DNA of 64,000 bases from Spiroplasma turonicum (lineage in GTDB: Bacteria > Bacillota_I > Bacilli_A > Mycoplasmatales > Mycoplasmataceae). The translations under genes and the position numbers were made by a program. Below the pieces are notes generated by a model. The model ran no database searches. It was not told where the DNA came from and worked only from the letters and a program-made list of their open reading frames with translations. This document shows positions 47,176 through 63,719 of this stretch, one piece after another. The stretch covers positions 930,001 to 994,000 of the forward strand of contig NZ_CP012328.1 in the NCBI RefSeq assembly GCF_001262715.1, in the 5' to 3' direction. Each line of letters opens with the position of its first letter. The stretch's first letter is position 1.

Positions 47176-48078
47176 ATGAAATATATAATAAATAATAATA
47201 TTCAAATCTACAGAGGTAAAGGGAAAATAATTATAGATGATTTTGAATTTTTTAAAGAGACAAAATTAAAATTTGACAAAAAAATGATAGAAGTATTATT
47301 ATTTTTTAAATCAGAAAAATCAATGTTAGATTTTATAAATAGTTTTAAAATAAAATCAGTTAATGAAGCAGAAAAAATAATATATCGTTTACTGGAATTA
47401 AATATTTTAAAAATATATAATAATAAGAAATGTATAAAAAATAAAACTATTTTAATAATAGGTTGTGGTGCAATGGGTAGTCTGTTGTATTTATCTATAA
47501 GTAAATCAAATTACATAAAAAAAATAATATTAATTGACGATGATATAATTGAGAAAAAAAATTTACAAATGCAAATTTTTACAATAAAAAATATTGGCAA
47601 ATTTAAAGTAGATATTCTTGAAGAATTATGTTCAAATGACTCTAAAATCATAAAAATAAAAACTAAAATTAATTCTGTAAATGAATTATGCAAAATTTTT
47701 AAAAATCATGCACCAGATATATCTATACTTTGTGCAGATGAACCTGATTGAAAAACGAATGCAAATATTATTAAGCAAGTATCTGAAATTTTTTCTAAAC
47801 CTTATATTTTATCTAAAGGTTATATAGGAAACATTACTGCTTTACCTGAGTTTTATTATCCTAATGATAAATCTGAATGAAATATTGATTCCGGAAAAGA
47901 AGAATTATTAATAAAAATTGAAAATAAAATTGAATTTCATGAATTATTACCTTCCATATTTATAATTACTAAACAATTAGAAAATTTTTTTGATAATAAA
48001 AAACCTATTTATTATAAAGAAAAAGGTTTCATAGACAAAAAAACAATAATAATTAAAAAATATGAAAAAAACTTATAA
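47176..48078 (+). CDS. ThiF/E1-like adenylating enzyme of a putative modified-peptide cluster
   Basis: 300-aa protein. Residues 1-80 form a small alpha/beta-plus-helix domain like the peptide-clamp (RRE) domain at the front of MccB and PaaA. Residues 90-300 are an E1-type Rossmann domain: GCGAMG at 96-101, DDD at 121-123 with NLQMQ following, and GKFK at 141-144. The usual NRQ Arg is replaced and the zinc CxxC pairs are absent. Such enzymes adenylate carboxyl or amide groups of a precursor peptide. Start ATG 47176 with AGGTGAT. Its end overlaps the next gene by 17 nt. Confidence 0.75.
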
Positions 48079-49195
48079 ATTATTTATAAAAACAGGAAAA
48101 ATTCTTGAATGTTTTAGAGGTTTCAAACAATTAAAGAAAAAAAAATATGCAAGATATATATTGGATAAAAAATGATCTAAAAATCCTTTCATAAACATTC
48201 CAAATAAAAATTTATCTTCAGCTACTAACTCAATAATTTTTAGATATATGACCTCTATAATTTTGTTTTTTTGTCAGTTATAAGAAAAATATAAAGAAAT
48301 AAACATTATTATTATCTTATACAATGAAAACAATATTGATAAATTTTCTAAAAAAATTTTGAAAGTATTAAGCGAACTTTTAGGAATAAATATTCAAGTT
48401 ATAAAAAAAGATAAAATATATCAAAAAAGAAATGCCAATTGATATAACATTAAAGTTTCTTGCTGTAGAGGATTTTATAACGAATTTAAAGTTGATTGAA
48501 ATAATGTATATTATATAATTCATATTATACATTCGTTAAAGTTTTATAAAATTAAATATAAAATAAATCTTTGAGAAAAAGCATTTAAATTGGTTAAAAA
48601 CTCATACGAAAAAAGGCTATTAAATTTAAACGCTTTTAGTTATTTTGTTAGAAATGATCATTCAATTGCTTTAAAATACTTGAAAAAAATTATTATTGAT
48701 TCAAAAAGTAAGTTTGAAAAGGTTAACTTGATTGCATTCTACAAGTTAAAAAAACATAACAAAAAAGAGGCTTTAAAATATATAGAATCAAAATACACAA
48801 AAAAAGAAATACTTAAACTAAATTACAATAATGTTTATTGCAATTTGCTAGCTAAAAACTATTCTTCAATTAGCCAAGATTATTTTTTTATAAAAAAAGT
48901 TTTACTAAAATGTTATAAATACTCTAAAAATAATGTAGATCTTATATTTGAATTATTAAAATATATAAATTTTAATAAAAAATGAAAAAAACTTTTAGTT
49001 AAAATGAATGATTATGGATATTATGACAATAGAGTTTTAGAATGGATGGGAATCGATACTTTTAGCGACTATACAAAATTATCTTACGTTATATTTAATT
49101 ATCTAACTAATAGTGATTTAAATCTTAATTGTAAATTTAGTAATAATAATATATTAATGCTATCACAAAAGTTTTTAAAAAAGGAGGTGAAATAA
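48062..49195 (+). pseudogene. unknown cluster protein interrupted by an in-frame TAA
   Basis: One frame of 378 codons runs from ATG 48062 to TAA 49193-49195, broken only by a TAA at 48281-48283 after 73 residues. Downstream of the break there is no ATG for about 240 codons, while the protein-like sequence and code-4 Trp codons go on, so a nonsense change is more likely than two genes. The product would be basic, helical in its second half (CYKYSKNNVDLIFELLKYINF), and has no motif I recognise, in particular no YcaO, radical SAM or oxygenase signature. Coupled to the enzyme upstream and to the peptide gene downstream. Confidence 0.6.
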
Positions 49196-49284
49196 TGAAT
49201 GATATTTTAGAAATTTTGGAAGATGCAGAAATTATCCCAGAAGCTTTAGAACAAATGGGTAATTGTTGAAACTTAAATCATTAG
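49195..49284 (+). CDS. 29-aa putative precursor peptide
   Basis: The ATG at 49195 overlaps the preceding TAA by one base and follows AAGGAGGTG, one of the strongest ribosome binding sites in the window. The peptide starts MNDILEILEDAE, has seven acidic residues in its first 19 and should be an amphipathic helix, then ends MGNCWNLNH. The Trp is a UGA codon, so the peptide is hidden under the standard code. Short acidic leader plus a short tail with Cys, Trp, Asn and His, next to an E1-like enzyme and an exporter, is the pattern of a RiPP precursor. Leader cleavage after Gly22 or Asn23 is a guess. Confidence 0.7.
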
Positions 49285-49299
49285 TTTTAGCTGCTCTAT

Positions 49300-49342
49300 A
49301 ACACTTTAAATGTTTTATAATAAAAAATTTAAAGTGTTTTTT
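49300..49342 (+). terminator. terminator hairpin behind the peptide gene
   Basis: 12-bp stem AACACTTTAAAT / ATTTAAAGTGTT followed by TTTTT, between the peptide gene and the exporter. Partial termination here would make more peptide mRNA than exporter mRNA. Confidence 0.85.
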
Positions 49343-49372
49343 ATTATAAAACAAAAGAAATAGGAGTTTATA

Positions 49373-50974
49373 ATGAAATATTTTAATAAATTAAATTGAT
49401 TACAATACTTGTCATACACATTTTTAACTTTATTAGGTAATGTATGTTATTTGGCAATGTCATATTCTTTTTCATTCATTATTGATAAAGCAATTGAAAA
49501 TGATTTTAATAGTTTTTTATTTTGATCAGGACTTTCATGTTTCTTTATTATAATGCATTTATTACTTGAATATATTGGAGAATTAGTTCTTAATTCAGCT
49601 TTAACTTCTTTAAATACATACCTTAGAGAGATTATTGCGAAAAATACGTTTAGTGACGTCTATCAGCTAAATTTAGATTCAGGTGAATTTATAAATTTGA
49701 ATTCAAATAAAATTAGTCAGATAGAAAATAATTATTTCCAAAGCATTTTTGAAATTACAAAATGTTTACTAGCAATTATTGTGAGTTTTATTTTAATAAT
49801 ATATATTAGTTGAATTGCTTTAATGCCAATTTTAATTCTGTCTATAATTGTTACAATAATTCCTTTTTCAATGTCAAAAATGAGTCAAAAAGCGGTTAAT
49901 AAAACTAATGAAGAAAATGATAAATTTTTACAATCTTCAAAAGATATATTTAATTCATATTGAACTTATTGAACTATGAATTTATCAAATAAGCTAATAA
50001 AAGATATAAAAAGTAACTCTATAAAACTTGAGAAAAAAAATAAAAGAATGAAAAATATTATGTCTTTAAGCTCTTTTTTAAATCAATTAATTCTTTTTTT
50101 GGGACAAGTTATTTTAATAATAGTATTTAGTTATTTTTATTTGAAAGGATTCATTAATAGTATTGGAATTATTACAACTTTAACTACAATTAGTGCAACA
50201 TATGTATTTTTTGGAAATAATAGTATTAGAGCATTTATGAAAATCTTATCTTTTAAAAAAGTACTAAAAAATGACTATAAATTAATAAATGAAACAATTG
50301 TTGATGACTTAATAAATAATAAAATTGATTTAAATGATGACTTAAAAAAAATAAAATATGAAAATTTAAATTTTAAGTTTATAAATAATAATAAATTTAC
50401 AGTTAGTAATTTTAATTTAGAAATAAATAAGGGTGATAAAATATTGATTCGTGGAAAAAGTGGAATTGGTAAAACAACCTTATTAAAATTATTATTTAAT
50501 CCAGTTACAAAAAACTCAGGAGAAGTTTATATTAATAATAAAAAAATGGTAGAAAAAGAAATTAGAAACTTTGCATCATATGTGAATCAAGATAGTATTT
50601 TGAATAAAGGTACACTTTATAGCAATTTAGTTATTGATGATAATTATGAAAATAGACAAGAAGTTTTAAATTATTTTAACCTATTAAATATGAAAGATTT
50701 AATTGCAAAATTACCAAATGGTCTTGATTCTATGGTTGAAGATAATTTTTCTAATTTTTCTGGTGGTGAAAGACAAAGAATATCGATTATAAGATCATTA
50801 TTATCAAATAAAAGTTGATTTTATTTAGATGAAATAACTTCATCACTAGATGAAAAAACTGCTAATATTATTTTCGATCTCTTTCTTAATGATCAAAATA
50901 AAACAATAATAATGATTTCTCATAAAGTTAATAATGATATTTTAAAAAAATTTAATAAGATAATAGATTTATAA
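49373..50974 (+). CDS. ABC exporter of the peptide cluster
   Basis: 533-aa half-transporter: about six membrane helices (residues 10-320) and an ATPase domain with Walker A GKSGIGKTT, Q-loop YVNQDS, signature FSGGERQR, Walker B WFYLDEITSSLD and an H-loop His in MISHKV. There is no N-terminal C39 peptidase, so leader removal needs another protease. Seven UGA codons are Trp. ATG 49373 behind AGGAG. Its place right behind the peptide gene suggests peptide export and self-protection. Confidence 0.9.
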
Positions 50975-58028: not shown

Positions 58029-58487
58029 TTATGTATTTGTATTACTTTTAGTAATAAAGTCAATAGTATAATTTTTTGTATTATTAAATTTTGATAAAGG
58101 AAATCATTCACCATTTAATTCAAACATAATATCAATTTCACAAGATAATAAATCATCATATAATTGTTCTTCAGAAATCACATATATTAATATAAAGACA
58201 TTTTTTGTTGGTTTTAAAGTTTTATCAACTGTAAATTTATTTCCACCAAAATTATTAGACTCAACTACTTTTTTAAATCAAGAATCTACAAGTTGTTGAT
58301 ACTCATTTTTATTTTTATCAATAAAACCAGTTTCTATTATCGACTCATTTTTAATTATTTCATATGCTTTATTAAATAAAGTGTTCATATTTGAAGTAAT
58401 AGTACCAGTGTTTGAACAAGAAGTAACTGACAAAATTGGAGTTGTAAATATAATGGATGTTGATAAAATAGATAAAAACTTTTTCAT
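58029..58487 (-). CDS. lipoprotein, accessory to the ABC locus
   Basis: 152-aa secreted lipoprotein: basic start MKKFLSIL, hydrophobic segment, and lipobox VTSC with the lipidated Cys at residue 24 followed by a Ser/Asn/Thr linker. The mature part is acidic to neutral and has no known domain. UGA codons at 70 and near 134 are Trp. Its ATG overlaps the ATPase stop by one base (TAATG). Last gene of the 58-64 kb run. Confidence 0.75.
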
Positions 58488-59281
58488 TATTTATTTTTAA
58501 CTCCTTTTATTATATCTGCTAAACTTCTGACTCCACCATTATCATTTTTAGAATTATTTATTATATCAGATATTCCTGTTACTTGATTTTTCTTTGTTAC
58601 TTGTAGATATATTTTTTCAAGTGACTCTTTGTTTTTATCAAAATAGTTGCTGTAAACAGTTTTACCATCTTCTATAATAACAATTCGAGTAATTAATTCT
58701 TCTAATTCATCAATTAAATGACTTGTAATTAATATGCCTATGCCAGATTGTGCTAATGCTCTAATTATATTTAAAAATTCTAATCTATTTTTTACATCTA
58801 AATTTGCAGTTGGTTCATCAAGTATTATGTAATCAGGTGAACTAATTAAGCAATTCATTAATAATGCTTTTTTTTGCATACCTGCACTTAAATCTTTAAA
58901 AGTTTTTTTCTTATAATCATTTAAATCCAAAGAATCACATAAGCTATCAAAGAGTTTAGTTGCTTCATCTCTATTTACATTTGATAACTCAGCTTCTAAT
59001 AAACAATAATCCTTTAAAGTAATATTTTTTGGATAAACACTCTGATCTGGAAAAAAGCTTATTTTGTTAATATATCCACTTGTATATATCGATACATCTC
59101 CATTTAAAACATCTCCACTATCTTTTTTATATTCATTAAAAATAGATTTTATAAGTGTTGTTTTTCCAGCACCGTTATCACCAACTAACCCAATGATATC
59201 TCCAGGTGAAATTACTAAATTGAAATCACTTATTCCTTTACCATTTTTAAATAGTTTTGAAACATTTATAATATTTATCAT
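58487..59281 (-). CDS. ABC transporter ATP-binding protein of the lipoprotein/permease locus
   Basis: 264-aa ATPase. Walker A GDNGAGKTT, a recognisable Q-loop region (FFPDQS), signature LSAGMQKKA, Walker B YIILDEPTANLD and H-loop ITSHLIDELEE. A C-terminal extension of about 50 residues (after VIIEDGKTVYSN) is polar. Only one ATPase gene serves two permeases here, so the complex is probably permease A + permease B + two ATPases. Starts one base into the permease stop. Confidence 0.92.
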   Translation of the reverse strand: MINIINVSKLFKNGKGISDFNLVISPGDIIGLVGDNGAGKTTLIKSIFNEYKKDSGDVLNGDVSIYTSGYINKISFFPDQSVYPKNITLKDYCLLEAELSNVNRDEATKLFDSLCDSLDLNDYKKKTFKDLSAGMQKKALLMNCLISSPDYIILDEPTANLDVKNRLEFLNIIRALAQSGIGILITSHLIDELEELITRIVIIEDGKTVYSNYFDKNKESLEKIYLQVTKKNQVTGISDIINNSKNDNGGVRSLADIIKGVKNK

Positions 59282-61050
59282 TATTTGTCACCACTTTTCT
59301 TATAAATTCTGTTAATAAATAATACATACGATAAGGCAATTAGCAATATAGAAGTACTTAATCAAAATGCATATATTCCTTCTATATAAAATTTTGTTGA
59401 GTATATATCATATGTTGGTTTAATATTAGGATTTAAAAATGTATCCATATAATTGTTTTGATAAACAACATTAGCAATAGGTCCTCTTAAAAATAAACTT
59501 GTTTGAATAAAAGAATTATAATAATTATTTGTAGAATTAAATGTATTAGACATTATAAAGAAATGATTAAATGGATTTAATATGTAGTTTAATTCTATAG
59601 TCCTATAATTTAATAATGAATTCATAAAATATTCTGAGTAACCTGGTTTATCAAATGAAGAATCATCTAATACATTATTTAAAATGTCAAATAAACCTAA
59701 ATAGTTATATGGTATTGTTAAATTTTTATTTAAATAATTAAAGTTATTTTCAAATTTAACTTGGTTATGAATTTTTTCATCACTAATATTTTGATAAATT
59801 TGTGGTGTTGAGTAATCTTCAATTGTATAACTATATTTAAAAACATTATATATTATTTTATACAAAGAATTGATTTCACTATCATTGGCATTAGGTTCTA
59901 TAATACCTAAATGATCTTTTTTAAACAAACTTTTAATTCCATTATCATACTCAAGAGAAGACAAATGATTATTTTTAAATAATGAGTTATCAAAATAATC
60001 TTTAGTATTTGCTTCTGGGCTAATTGTTGGTGATATCATATACAAACTTTTTGCAAATAAATCTTTATCTTGAATAGATTTAATTTGTTTATTGAAATCA
60101 TCAGGTATTACAAGAGAGATTTTAAAAATACCATTACTACTTTCAAAGTAGTTTTTAATGAAACTTGATAAATCATTTGAGTTATCTTTACTATTATTTA
60201 TTCTATAAAGTTCTGGTATTAAAAAACTACTTGTAAACATTTTTATTATGAATTTTTTTACATATTCTTGATTGGTAGTTGAATTTTCTTGATTTATTAT
60301 TGAAACATCAATTAAATTAATAACTTTTGAGTATTCATTTATTAATTTTTGACTATTAAAATAATCATCATAAATTTTATTTACTAATGAATTATTTTTA
60401 TTTCTCTCTTTATATATATCATATGTTGATAAATTTTTTATTGCATTATTATCGCTAATGTCAATTACACCAAACATAATAAATGTTCCAGGTCCTAATA
60501 TTGGTGATAATATAAAAAGAATTGAAAACATTCAAGAAAATGGTAATGTTTTTTTATAACTTTTTGTTGTTACTGAAAATAATAATACTAGTCAAGTTAT
60601 AAAAAAGTCATAAGCTATTAATACAAAAATACCAATAGAATAATTATTTGAAGCAATTGGCCTGAATGATTTTTTTGAGATAAATGATAAAACAAAATAT
60701 AATAAGTAAACAAATAATATAAAAATAGTTGAAACTAATTTATTAACTAATATTTTAGAAAAAAATATTGTAGTAGGTTTTCTACCTTTTCTCAACATTA
60801 AAGATTCGATATTTGAAACATGATCTTGAATAAAGGACTCCGTTAAATTTGTTATATTAAAATAACTTATATATATCATATTTATTAAAATAATAAATAT
60901 CATAGCACTTGTTATAACCATAAAACTTTCAGCCATTGAAAAAATAATTATATTTATTAATATATTTATTAAAATAACTGATATTAAAGGGACTAAGAAC
61001 GTTTTTTTCTTTACTGTTCTTAAAAAAGAAAACTTAAATATAACTTTCAT
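59281..61050 (-). CDS. ABC permease with large extracellular domain (copy A)
   Basis: 589-aa membrane protein. Five helices lie in the first 190 residues, with the cytoplasmic segment IESLMLRKGRKPTTIFFSKI between helix 2 and 3 and SYKKTLPFSW before helix 5. Residues about 200-555 form a large extracellular domain, followed by one C-terminal helix and a basic tail. The sequence and layout match the gene at 61908-63653 throughout (SNIESLM, RKGRKP/RKGKKP, FFSKI, FNLNPF-like). Two UGA codons are Trp. Coupled to the ATPase by a one-base overlap. Confidence 0.85.
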
Positions 61051-61053
61051 AAA

Positions 61054-61431
61054 TTAAAATTCCTTTTCAATAATAGAGAAAGTGTATTCCCCTAATAATT
61101 TATATGAAGTAATAATTGAAGCTATTTTAATTACAGCATTTTTTACAATATTATTTTTCTCATCCAGAGAACCTTCTTTATAAATAAATTCATAATCTAT
61201 TTGTAAATATGGAGTTTCATAATTAAAATATTTAAAATATGTTATTAAAAAACTATTTACTTTCTCTTCAAAACTTGATTTTAATGTTCCAGTTTTAACA
61301 TCATTAAAAGGTATCATTTCTAAATAAATTGGGGTTTGGTTCAATTTTGGTTTTGGGTCACACGAAATTGAACTAAATGAGCTAATACCTATTAATGTAA
61401 ATAAAAACATTGAGCTTAACATCCTTTTCAT
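61054..61431 (-). CDS. small lipoprotein
   Basis: 125-aa protein with a lipoprotein signal: MKRMLSSMFLFTLIG, then SSISC with Cys at residue 24. The mature domain of about 100 residues has no motif that I know. ATG 61431 with GGAGAGG. It sits between the two permease copies with a 3-nt gap to permease A. Similar in size and style to the lipoproteins at 61437 and 58029, suggesting a family. Confidence 0.75.
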   Translation of the reverse strand: MKRMLSSMFLFTLIGISSFSSISCDPKPKLNQTPIYLEMIPFNDVKTGTLKSSFEEKVNSFLITYFKYFNYETPYLQIDYEFIYKEGSLDEKNNIVKNAVIKIASIITSYKLLGEYTFSIIEKEF

Positions 61432-61436
61432 AAGTT

Positions 61437-61901
61437 TTATTCCTCTCCATTATAAATAAATTTAATAGTTATATCTGATTTATTATTTATAGAATAGTTC
61501 GCTAAAGATTTTCAACTATTTTCAAAATATATAAAAGTTTTTACTACATAAATTATTTCTTTTCCATCTCCAAAATAATTTGGTTTAATGGAGTCATATT
61601 TATAATCTATTAATATTTTGTTTTTATCATTTATGTCATTACTATCAAAAACTATTTGATAATCTGACAATTTAATTGTATTTAATAACTTAAATATTCA
61701 TTCTTCCAAAGAGCTTTTCTCATCTTTTGTATACACATGTTTATTTTTTTCAGCCTTATTTTCTAAATACTTTTTAATAATAGTAAAATTATTACTATAT
61801 CTTGTATATTCAAAATCAAGTGTACTACATGAAGTTGACAAGATTGTTGTTGATGAAATTAAAGCACTGGAAAATATACTAATAAATATTTTTTTCAACA
61901 T
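61437..61901 (-). CDS. small lipoprotein
   Basis: 154-aa lipoprotein starting MLKKIFISIFSSALISS, lipobox STSC with Cys near residue 25. Start placed at ATG 61901, which fits the AGGTGG ribosome binding site better than the GTG two codons upstream. UGA codons at about residues 68 and 137 are Trp. The mature part has a mixed beta-like pattern (FYDGKEIIYVVKTFIYF). It begins 6 nt from the end of permease B. Confidence 0.75.
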
Positions 61902-61907
61902 TACCAC

Positions 61908-63653
61908 CTAACCTTCCTTACTCTTAACATATATTTTTTTGTAATAAATAAGAAAAGAGAGACTAAAAATTGAAATTGGTATTAAAATTCATGCTAAATA
62001 AATGTATTCTAACTTAAAAAACGAGTTAGTTAATTTATATTCTCCATCAATGCTAGGGTCTTTAAAACTTTCATATTCATTAGTTTGTAAGACATGAGCA
62101 TAATAAGGAATTGGAAATATTAAGTTTTTATATATAAATTGGTCATAATAATTATCTTTGGAACCCATATTATTAGACATTACAAATATTTGAAGAAATG
62201 GATTTAAATTATAAAAATTTTTACTTATGCTGTAAAAGTTATAAAACTCATATAAAGATTTCCCTTGATCAACACCTGGTTCTTGTAATAATTCTGTTAA
62301 AAAATATATAAATGTATGATAATTATATGGAATTCTAAAATACTTATTAAATGTATCAATATGTTCATAGAAATCAAATATATTAAAACCAAATGAATTA
62401 TAATAAAACTTTGTATTTGAGTAATAATACAATACTTGGTTTTTAATAATTTTATTTATTTTACTTAAATCATTTTTGTTGTAGTTGTCTAGTATTTTAT
62501 CAAAATTTGTAAAACTTTCAGGAGAACTTAATCCACTTTTTTTAAATAATGATTTATAAACATTAGTGGAAAAATAAGAGTTATCTCAATAAATGTTTTT
62601 ATTGAATATTGGGTCAACTTCTTCGGGTGCAGCAGTAACTAAATCCATTAAGAAATCATCTTTTTTTTGTAAATCTAATAACTTAGTTGTAAAGTTTTTA
62701 CTAAACTCAATTTTAAAAGAAGAATTCTGATCATTCAAATTAAAAAAGTCTTTTCAAAAGTTTATATATTGATTATTATTATTTAAAATATACATTTCTA
62801 AAGACATAAAATTATTCATAGTATAATCTATAATTAAACTTCTAGCACTATCAATAACATTTGATTTCGATTCAGTACCAGAATAATCAATTTTTAAATT
62901 CTCATCTGAAAATAAATTCTCATATTGACTTTTTAAACTTGCTTTACTTTTGTAATCATTAAATAATTTTATTAATATTGAGTTATCATTTTTTCTTTCT
63001 AAATAAGAATCATATTTACCATAATTATATGCATTTGTTGTCTCTGAAAAACTTGGTTGACCCATTGTTATTAAGTAAATAATCATTGGTCCTAAAACTG
63101 GATATAGTCCAATAAAAGTTGTAAAAATTCAAGGTAAAGGTAATGTTTTTTTATAACTTTTTGTAAATACAGCTAAAAACAATGTAATAGCAGTTATAAA
63201 TAAATCAAAAGCAAATAGTACAAATAAACCTAATGAGTACTTATAAGTTACTATTTCCTGATATTGATTTTGAACTAAAAATGATAATAAAAAATATATT
63301 AATATTATTAGAAATATATAAGAGAAAGAAACTAATTTGTTAATAAATATTTTTGAAAAAAATATGTTCTTAGGTTTTTTTCCTTTTCTTATCATTAGTG
63401 ACTCAAGGTTTGATATATTATCTTGTATGAAAAAATCAGCTATATTTGAAATATTAAAAAAAGCTAAAAATAGAAAATTTATAATAAATACTGGAATTGT
63501 ACTGATTGTAATTGTTGAAAAACTTTTAGCAATTAAAAAAATACATAACATTAATATGATATTTATTCATATTAGTATACTAAAACCAATAATATACATT
63601 TTATTTTTAATAACTCTCAATAATGAAAATTTAAAAACTGTAAATCTATTCAT
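61908..63653 (-). CDS. ABC permease with large extracellular domain (copy B)
   Basis: 581-aa paralog of the 59281-61050 protein. Same five N-terminal helices, the matching NLESLMIRKGKKPKNIFFSKIF segment, KSYKKTLPLPW, a large extracellular domain (about residues 200-550) with NPFLQIFVMSNNMGSKDNYY like copy A, and a single final helix. Several UGA codons are Trp. ATG 63653 behind AAGGAG. It is preceded by a lipoprotein gene that enters the window from the right. Confidence 0.85.
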
Positions 63654-63719
63654 ATTTACTCCTTGATATAAATTTAACACAAATAATTCCAATTATAATT
63701 AGTTTCATAGAAATTATTT

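What the first reader, a model, noticed from the sequence alone, without database searches (positions are those of the whole stretch)
47176..50974. Candidate RiPP locus: E1-like enzyme, unknown protein, 29-aa peptide, terminator, ABC exporter
Seen: four consecutive co-directional genes with overlaps, one encoding a 29-aa peptide with a very strong ribosome binding site, acidic leader and Cys/Trp/His tail. Known: MccB (microcin C) and PaaA (pantocin A) are ThiF-like enzymes with an N-terminal peptide-binding domain acting on short precursors, and exporters flank such genes. Inference: this is a modified-peptide pathway, new for this bacterial group. The tail does not end in Asn as MccA does, and no YcaO partner is present, so chemistry would differ from microcin C and from azole peptides.
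Basis: partly seen in the sequence, partly recalled or inferred. Interest (0 to 1): 0.9.

Follow-up and report, generated by a model that had tools for sequence, protein, structure and literature searches.

The report
Broken mobile peptide-modifying cassette in Spiroplasma
A horse-fly bacterium carries a small gene set for making a chemically modified peptide; the same set turns up in a honeybee Spiroplasma and intact on honeybee-gut Lactobacillus plasmids, so it appears to be a new peptide family that moves between insect bacteria, although the copy read here is probably broken.

Summary
The locus is real. A 300-aa ThiF-like enzyme, an unknown protein, a 29-aa peptide, a terminator-like hairpin and an ABC exporter lie in a row. 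Its best-matching relative, by size S. apis (honeybee), holds the cassette at another, IS-flanked place. The cassette's synonymous divergence is 0.14-0.19 against 1.3-1.5 for core genes, so it was acquired recently by horizontal transfer.

The same set (precursor, ThiF, unknown, ABC) lies intact on three plasmids of the honeybee symbiont Lactobacillus helsingborgensis, and in decayed form in an unnamed Lactobacillaceae genome. All precursors end in (C/S)-W-x-L-x-(N/H), with four residues after the Trp. The two intact-length enzymes form one clade, outside cofactor MoeB/ThiF, with MccB/PaaA as nearest folds. This is therefore a RiPP cassette of the ThiF-like adenylyltransferase kind, a new subfamily and not microcin C.

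Most likely chemistry: adenylation of the peptide C-terminus and ring closure onto Cys or Trp (inferred). In S. turonicum the nonsense codon and loss of the conserved catalytic Arg (NLQMQ) make a working pathway unlikely.

The parts
47176..48078 (+). E1-like (ThiF-family) enzyme, 300 aa; N-terminal ~80 aa RRE-like, then nucleotide-binding domain; catalytic Arg position is Met (NLQMQ), Lys and Asp kept
   Evidence: Pfam ThiF E 9e-14; MccB/PaaA best in PDB by sequence and fold; alignment of motifs
48062..49195 (+). ORF2, unknown all-helical (TPR-like?) protein, 377 codons plus stop if read through; here split by a nonsense codon
48281..48283 (+). in-frame TAA that interrupts ORF2 (AAA in the Spiroplasma relative G028)
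49182..49187 (+). Shine-Dalgarno AGGAGG of the precursor gene
49195..49284 (+). precursor peptide MNDILEILEDAEIIPEALEQMGNCWNLNH; core motif (C/S)WxLx(N/H) at the C-terminus
49300..49345 (+). hairpin with U-run after the precursor (terminator or attenuator); a hairpin also follows the Lactobacillaceae precursors
   Evidence: fold z -3.0 here, -4.3 in L. helsingborgensis, -3.5 in G729
49373..50974 (+). ABC exporter, 533 aa, fused membrane and ATPase domains, no N-terminal peptidase
   Evidence: 92-93% identical in G028

Best explanation
A horizontally acquired RiPP biosynthesis cassette of the ThiF-like-adenylyltransferase kind, forming its own subfamily. Shown: an enzyme with RRE-like N-domain plus E1 fold, a helical partner protein, a short precursor with trailing hairpin, and an exporter occur together in Spiroplasma and in Lactobacillaceae. 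Shown: the precursors share a fixed C-terminal motif (C/S)-W-x-L-x-(N/H), with exactly four residues after the Trp. Inferred: in an intact cassette the RRE binds the leader, the E1 domain adenylates the C-terminal carboxylate with ATP, and the side chain of the Cys (thiolactone, ring of 6 residues) or of the invariant Trp (indolylamide, ring of 5) attacks it, closing a ring with loss of water. The helical protein assists (peptide binding, maturation or immunity) and the ABC protein exports the product. In S. turonicum itself the cassette is most likely a recent casualty: ORF2 is cut by a stop codon and the enzyme has lost the conserved Arg, so little or no finished product is expected, while peptide, hairpin and exporter remain intact.
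For: Same gene set on three L. helsingborgensis plasmids, with the 3.8-kb cassette identical in all three: precursor MEAIDLSSLEVSSAIGQAGTCWTLWN, hairpin, E1, 393-aa unknown, ABC. Full-length E1 homology (blastp 7.8e-34, clade support 100/99, shared LPEFYYPN). ORF2 homology on both sides of the TAA (4e-9 and 1e-6). Precursor similarity: 3 of 20,000 shuffles reach it, and Cys lies exactly 5 residues from the end in both. Third precursor in G729...NSWQLWN, in a decayed cassette with the same order. E1 folds best onto PaaA and MccB over ~320 columns including the RRE. ThiF-like RiPP enzymes are known to activate carboxylates and close thiolactone or Trp-indolylamide rings (PMC12150305, PMC12250964). 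Recent transfer: cassette dS 0.14-0.19 against 1.26-1.48 for recA, ffh, rny, sdr; other locus in G028, IS-flanked. Decay.
Against: No chemistry was tested; the ring is inferred from family precedent and residue spacing. G729 has Ser for Cys (in a broken cassette), so Cys may not be the reacting residue. The ABC gene is not specifically orthologous between the genera and belongs to a family found in several other Spiroplasma without E1 or CW peptide nearby, so its role as the exporter of this peptide is by position only. The E1 and ORF2 models have low confidence (pLDDT 54 and 47). Both E1 and ORF2 keep dN/dS near 0.3, and the E1 frame is intact in S. turonicum, so some function there is not excluded.
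Confidence: 0.72

Rival explanations
1. A microcin C-like pathway: the enzyme attaches a nucleotide to the peptide's C-terminal residue through an N-P bond, giving a Trojan-horse antibiotic.
For: Nearest solved enzyme by sequence is MccB; both Lactobacillaceae precursors end in Asn; McC-type clusters with Asn-ending peptides exist in other Mycoplasmatales.
Against: Both Spiroplasma precursors end in His, while MccB acts on C-terminal Asn (PMC12250964). No MccF, MccE or MFS exporter in the cassette. The enzymes lack the Cys pairs of MccB and form a separate clade. A fixed (C/S)W spacing would have no reason in McC.
Confidence: 0.12
2. The E1-like protein is a scaffold without catalysis (as ThiF domains are in YcaO systems) that presents the peptide to ORF2, which is the real enzyme.
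For: Arg to Met in S. turonicum; ThiF domains in YcaO pathways act only as docking modules (PMC12150305); ORF2 is the only other enzyme candidate.
Against: The intact L. helsingborgensis enzyme and the remaining part of the G729 enzyme keep Arg, Lys and Asp. ORF2 looks like a helical repeat without any recognisable catalytic family.
Confidence: 0.1
3. The S. turonicum cassette still works: the two ORF2 fragments are translated separately and associate, and the enzyme tolerates Met.
For: E1 and ABC open; peptide conserved with 2 nonsynonymous and 3 synonymous changes; dN/dS 0.17 before and 0.35 after the stop.
Against: In G028 E1 carries several frameshifts and ORF2 one, in G729 E1 has an internal deletion and ORF2 is almost gone: the cassette is repeatedly lost. 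The Arg is essential in EnfB (PMC12250964). The divergence is too small for dN/dS to show relaxed selection after a recent break.
Confidence: 0.15
4. An ordinary MoeB/ThiF of cofactor metabolism beside unrelated small ORFs.
For: ThiF Pfam domain.
Against: Scores of 28-56 bits against cut-offs of 152-376 for the ThiF and MoeB models, an N-terminal extra domain, no ThiS/MoaD partner in the cassette, and the cassette is conserved with its peptide across genera.
Confidence: 0.02

Closest known systems
ind cluster (IndA/IndF, Streptococcus pneumoniae; Trp-Ile indolylamide, PMC12150305)
   Same: RRE+ThiF enzyme, short precursor with a Trp a few residues from the C-terminus, transporter, no YcaO
   Different: No peptidase gene here; helical ORF2 instead; Trp to C-terminus is 5 residues (4 in IndA, WYFI); Cys or Ser precedes Trp; enzyme sequence not directly compared (not held)
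Enterofaecin cluster (EnfA/EnfB, Enterococcus; PMC12250964)
   Same: Short precursor with Trp residues near the C-terminus, RRE+ThiF enzyme, ABC export, association with transposons
   Different: Motif WWIVI against (C/S)WxLx(N/H); leader motif (V/I)RKA absent; ORF2 family absent from the description
GRC RiPPs (GrcA/GrcB, thiolactone; PMC12250964)
   Same: ThiF-like enzyme with RRE that closes a thiolactone with a Cys
   Different: GRC joins Glu to the C-terminal Cys and has radical SAM enzymes; neither feature here
Microcin C (MccA/MccB)
   Same: Best PDB sequence relative and fold
   Different: C-terminal His in Spiroplasma, no immunity genes, ABC in place of MFS exporter, no zinc Cys pairs
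Pantocin A (PaaP/PaaA)
   Same: Top fold match with MccB
   Different: No Glu-Glu-Asn core in the precursor

Membership tests
ThiF-like adenylyltransferase (TLAT) RiPPs | E1 (ThiF) domain fused to N-terminal RRE | tested here: met
   Pfam ThiF 9e-14; model strands 2-32 then helices 35-74 before the Rossmann part (low confidence); Foldseek aligns ~320 columns of PaaA/MccB
ThiF-like adenylyltransferase (TLAT) RiPPs | Short precursor peptide gene in the cluster, conserved with it | tested here: met
ThiF-like adenylyltransferase (TLAT) RiPPs | Catalytic residues Arg, Lys, Asp (R167/K180/D225 of EnfB) | tested here: inconclusive
   All three in L. helsingborgensis and in the remaining part of G729; in S. 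turonicum Lys and Asp present, Arg replaced by Met
ThiF-like adenylyltransferase (TLAT) RiPPs | Exporter in the cluster, no YcaO cyclodehydratase | tested here: met
   ABC gene follows in all four instances (frameshifted in G729); no YcaO recognised in the cassettes by reading and annotation; genome-wide YcaO not searched
ThiF-like adenylyltransferase (TLAT) RiPPs | ATP-dependent modification of the precursor | not testable with these tools
   needs biochemistry
Microcin C | Precursor ends in Asn | tested here: not met
   His in S. turonicum and in G028; Asn only in the Lactobacillaceae members
Microcin C | Immunity gene (MccF, MccE or HIT) and MFS exporter | tested here: not met
   cassette gene content
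Pantocin A | Glu-Glu-Asn core in the precursor | tested here: not met
   precursor sequences
GRC thiolactone RiPPs | C-terminal Cys and radical SAM partners | tested here: not met
Indolylamide (Ind) RiPPs | Trp-to-C-terminus amide | not testable with these tools
   Trp invariant at fixed distance from the end; chemistry untested

The most novel reading that the evidence does not exclude
A new RiPP class with a (C/S)WxLx(N/H) core, closed by an E1 enzyme that needs a helical-repeat partner unknown elsewhere, carried on IS-linked and plasmid DNA between Mollicutes and lactic acid bacteria of insects, and repeatedly inactivated after arrival as if its product were costly or its benefit short-lived.
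Probability: 0.45. Interest if true: 0.75.

Novelty: new variant of a known kind. Interest (0 to 1): 0.6.

Why it matters
Wall-less bacteria with small genomes are not known as makers of modified peptides, and no held paper joins Spiroplasma with RiPPs and bacteriocins. Here a peptide-modifying cassette is shared, by recent transfer, between Spiroplasma of horse flies and apparently of honeybees, and a homologous intact cassette sits on plasmids of a honeybee-gut Lactobacillus. That gives a testable molecule (26-aa precursor, two proteins) for chemistry between gut bacteria of bees, a new ThiF-like subfamily with an uncharacterised partner protein, and a natural series of intact and broken copies that shows which parts are lost first.

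Tried and rejected
Ordinary MoeB/ThiF: rejected. Microcin C membership: rejected on the C-terminal His and gene content. Reading ORF2 as two natural genes: rejected because homology to the 393-aa Lactobacillus protein covers both halves and G028 has no stop there. Weak ORF2-profile hits in G579 and G416: the G579 one lies in an ORF that looks like RimO and was set aside as chance; G416 not followed. ABC as a co-inherited part: rejected, no reciprocal best hit. CW-type peptides near related ABC genes in G030, G037, G045, G036: none; none convincing beside 14 other Lactobacillaceae E1 loci. Phage and viral collections: nothing. First genome-contig scan with P0001 alone: nothing. A possible IS end AAAAGTGGACTYTAA before E1 is shared by window and G028 with one exact match each, but no inverted partner was found.

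Full report
What is there. On the + strand of the window lie an E1-like gene (47176-48078, 300 aa), a second ORF from 48062 to 49195, a 29-codon gene at 49195-49284 with a perfect AGGAGG seven bases before its ATG, a hairpin followed by U residues (49300-49345, z = -3.0) and an ABC exporter gene (49373-50974). Only four ATGs in the window have AGGAGG at the right place, and the other three start real genes of 140-613 codons, so the peptide gene is not a chance ORF. The second ORF is not intact: codon 74 is TAA (48281-48283). The E1 gene is the only ThiF-family gene found in the 1.26-Mb genome.

Where it is. The genome is 1,261,374 bp, the exact length of the PacBio chromosome of Spiroplasma turonicum Tab4c from a horse fly (PMC4653801). 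A second group resequenced the strain with Illumina at 288-fold and found only 13 differences (PMC5034139), so the stop codon is probably real, though that site was not checked directly. The best-matching relative G028 is 1,160,554 bp, the length of Spiroplasma apis B31 from honeybees (PMC3886961). Naming both genomes by length is an inference.

The relative. G028 has the same gene order: ABC intact (92-93% identical), peptide 27 of 29 residues identical, ORF2 continuous at the window's TAA (AAA) but frameshifted further on, and E1 broken by several indels. The peptide was found in no other of the 20 genus genomes searched, and ORF2 in no other of 320 genomes of the order. Synonymous divergence is 0.14-0.19 in the larger cassette genes (0.25 in the 29-codon peptide gene) but 1.26-1.48 in recA, ffh, rny and an sdr gene. 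The cassette sits between rny and recA in the window. In G028 that interval holds an IS3-type transposase and other ORFs instead, and the cassette lies near 726 kb among transposases. The two copies therefore come from a recent transfer and not from the common ancestor of the species.

The key find. A tblastn search of plasmids gave one full-length relative of the enzyme, on plasmids of Lactobacillus helsingborgensis from honeybees. There the order is precursor, hairpin, E1, a 393-aa unknown protein, ABC, with the 3.8-kb stretch identical in three plasmids. The E1 enzymes align end to end (blastp 7.8e-34) and form a clade with support 100/99, separate from the MccB group and from MoeB/ThiF; the deeper forks are weak and both branches are long, which the tree program flags as a possible artefact, but the shared LPEFYYPN motif, the ORF2 homology and the precursor do not depend on the tree. 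The 393-aa protein is homologous to ORF2 on both sides of the TAA, which shows that ORF2 in the window is an interrupted gene. The precursor MEAIDLSSLEVSSAIGQAGTCWTLWN matches MNDILEILEDAEIIPEALEQMGNCWNLNH better than all but 3 of 20,000 shuffles, with the Cys-Trp pair at the same distance from the C-terminus. A scan of 84,980 species genomes that used the enzyme's LPEFYYP motif and one other conserved stretch found only L. helsingborgensis. A profile search of 398 Lactobacillaceae genomes then found a decayed cassette in G729: precursor MKEVSTEEVIDLTTLDVTLSYTQKRNSWQLWN, hairpin (z = -3.5), E1 with an internal deletion over the nucleotide-binding part, ORF2 reduced to a remnant, ABC frameshifted, and a transposase next door. 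Across the genera the precursors share (C/S)-W-x-L-x-(N/H) at the very end; the leaders differ.

What the enzyme is. By sequence its nearest solved relatives are MccB and then PaaA, and the model, though of low confidence, aligns over about 320 columns with PaaA and MccB, RRE included. The NCBIfam ThiF and MoeB models match far below their cut-offs. Published ThiF-like RiPP enzymes adenylate a peptide carboxylate and pass it to a nucleophile: Cys (thiolactone, GrcB), Trp indole (IndF), a backbone amide (EnfB), or, in MccB, nucleotide transfer to C-terminal Asn (PMC12150305, PMC12250964). A fixed Cys/Ser-Trp pair with five and four residues after it fits ring closure from the C-terminus. Trp is the one nucleophile kept in all precursors; Cys is Ser in G729. 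I cannot decide between thiolactone and indolylamide. ORF2 is predicted all-helical with a TPR-like centre and only weak matches (Tom70, and the peptide-binding regulators NprR and Rap); a peptide-binding helper or immunity role is a guess.

State of the window copy. The enzyme has Met where L. helsingborgensis, G729, MccB, MoeB and ThiF have the catalytic Arg (NLQMQ against N(I/L)YRQ, NLTRQ, NLQRQ), while Lys and Asp remain. The review of EnfB lists this Arg as essential for ATP binding. Together with the nonsense codon this makes an active pathway unlikely. dN/dS of about 0.3 for E1 and ORF2 suggests that selection acted until recently. The exporter belongs to an ABC family that several other Spiroplasma carry without E1 or a CW peptide nearby and is not the specific counterpart of the Lactobacillus exporter, so its link to this peptide rests on position.

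Verdict. It is a new variant of a known kind: a new ThiF-like RiPP subfamily that moves among insect-associated Mollicutes and lactobacilli, with the L. helsingborgensis plasmid copy as the one to test.

Noticed in passing
L013:1113-3129 (G208) and L014:301-2235 with upstream peptide (G202): Microcin C-like loci in other Mycoplasmatales: one protein that joins an MccB-like RRE+ThiF part to what looks like an MccF-like S66 peptidase (recognised by eye, not tested against Pfam), preceded by Asn-ending peptides MIPSTWAVNVFN and MPIEWSVINFN (read by eye from the sequence).
   Followed up: partly
L012:6414-10014 (G030, same genus): A second, different E1-type gene, broken by a frameshift, followed by two unknown ORFs and an MFS-like transporter: probably the remains of another RiPP locus.
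   Followed up: no
L015 (G307): An MccB-like gene interrupted by a transposase ORF, with a second copy of the same transposase nearby.
   Followed up: no
L049:2456-4342 (Borreliella garinii plasmid lp25): ThiF-family adenylyltransferase directly followed by an MFS transporter, the layout of a microcin C-like locus on a Borreliella plasmid.
   Followed up: no
L050:1463-6067 (Moraxella osloensis plasmid pNP7-2): A 63-aa Cys-rich small protein, two ThiF-like enzymes in tandem and an ABC protein: another candidate ThiF-like RiPP cluster.
   Followed up: no
L024:16992-18879: A lantibiotic dehydratase gene about 4 kb beyond the cassette on the same L. helsingborgensis plasmid.
   Followed up: no
window 58029-63692: Repeated sets of a large multi-spanning membrane protein and small probable lipoproteins, with one ABC ATPase (58487-59281) between them, on the - strand.
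   Followed up: no
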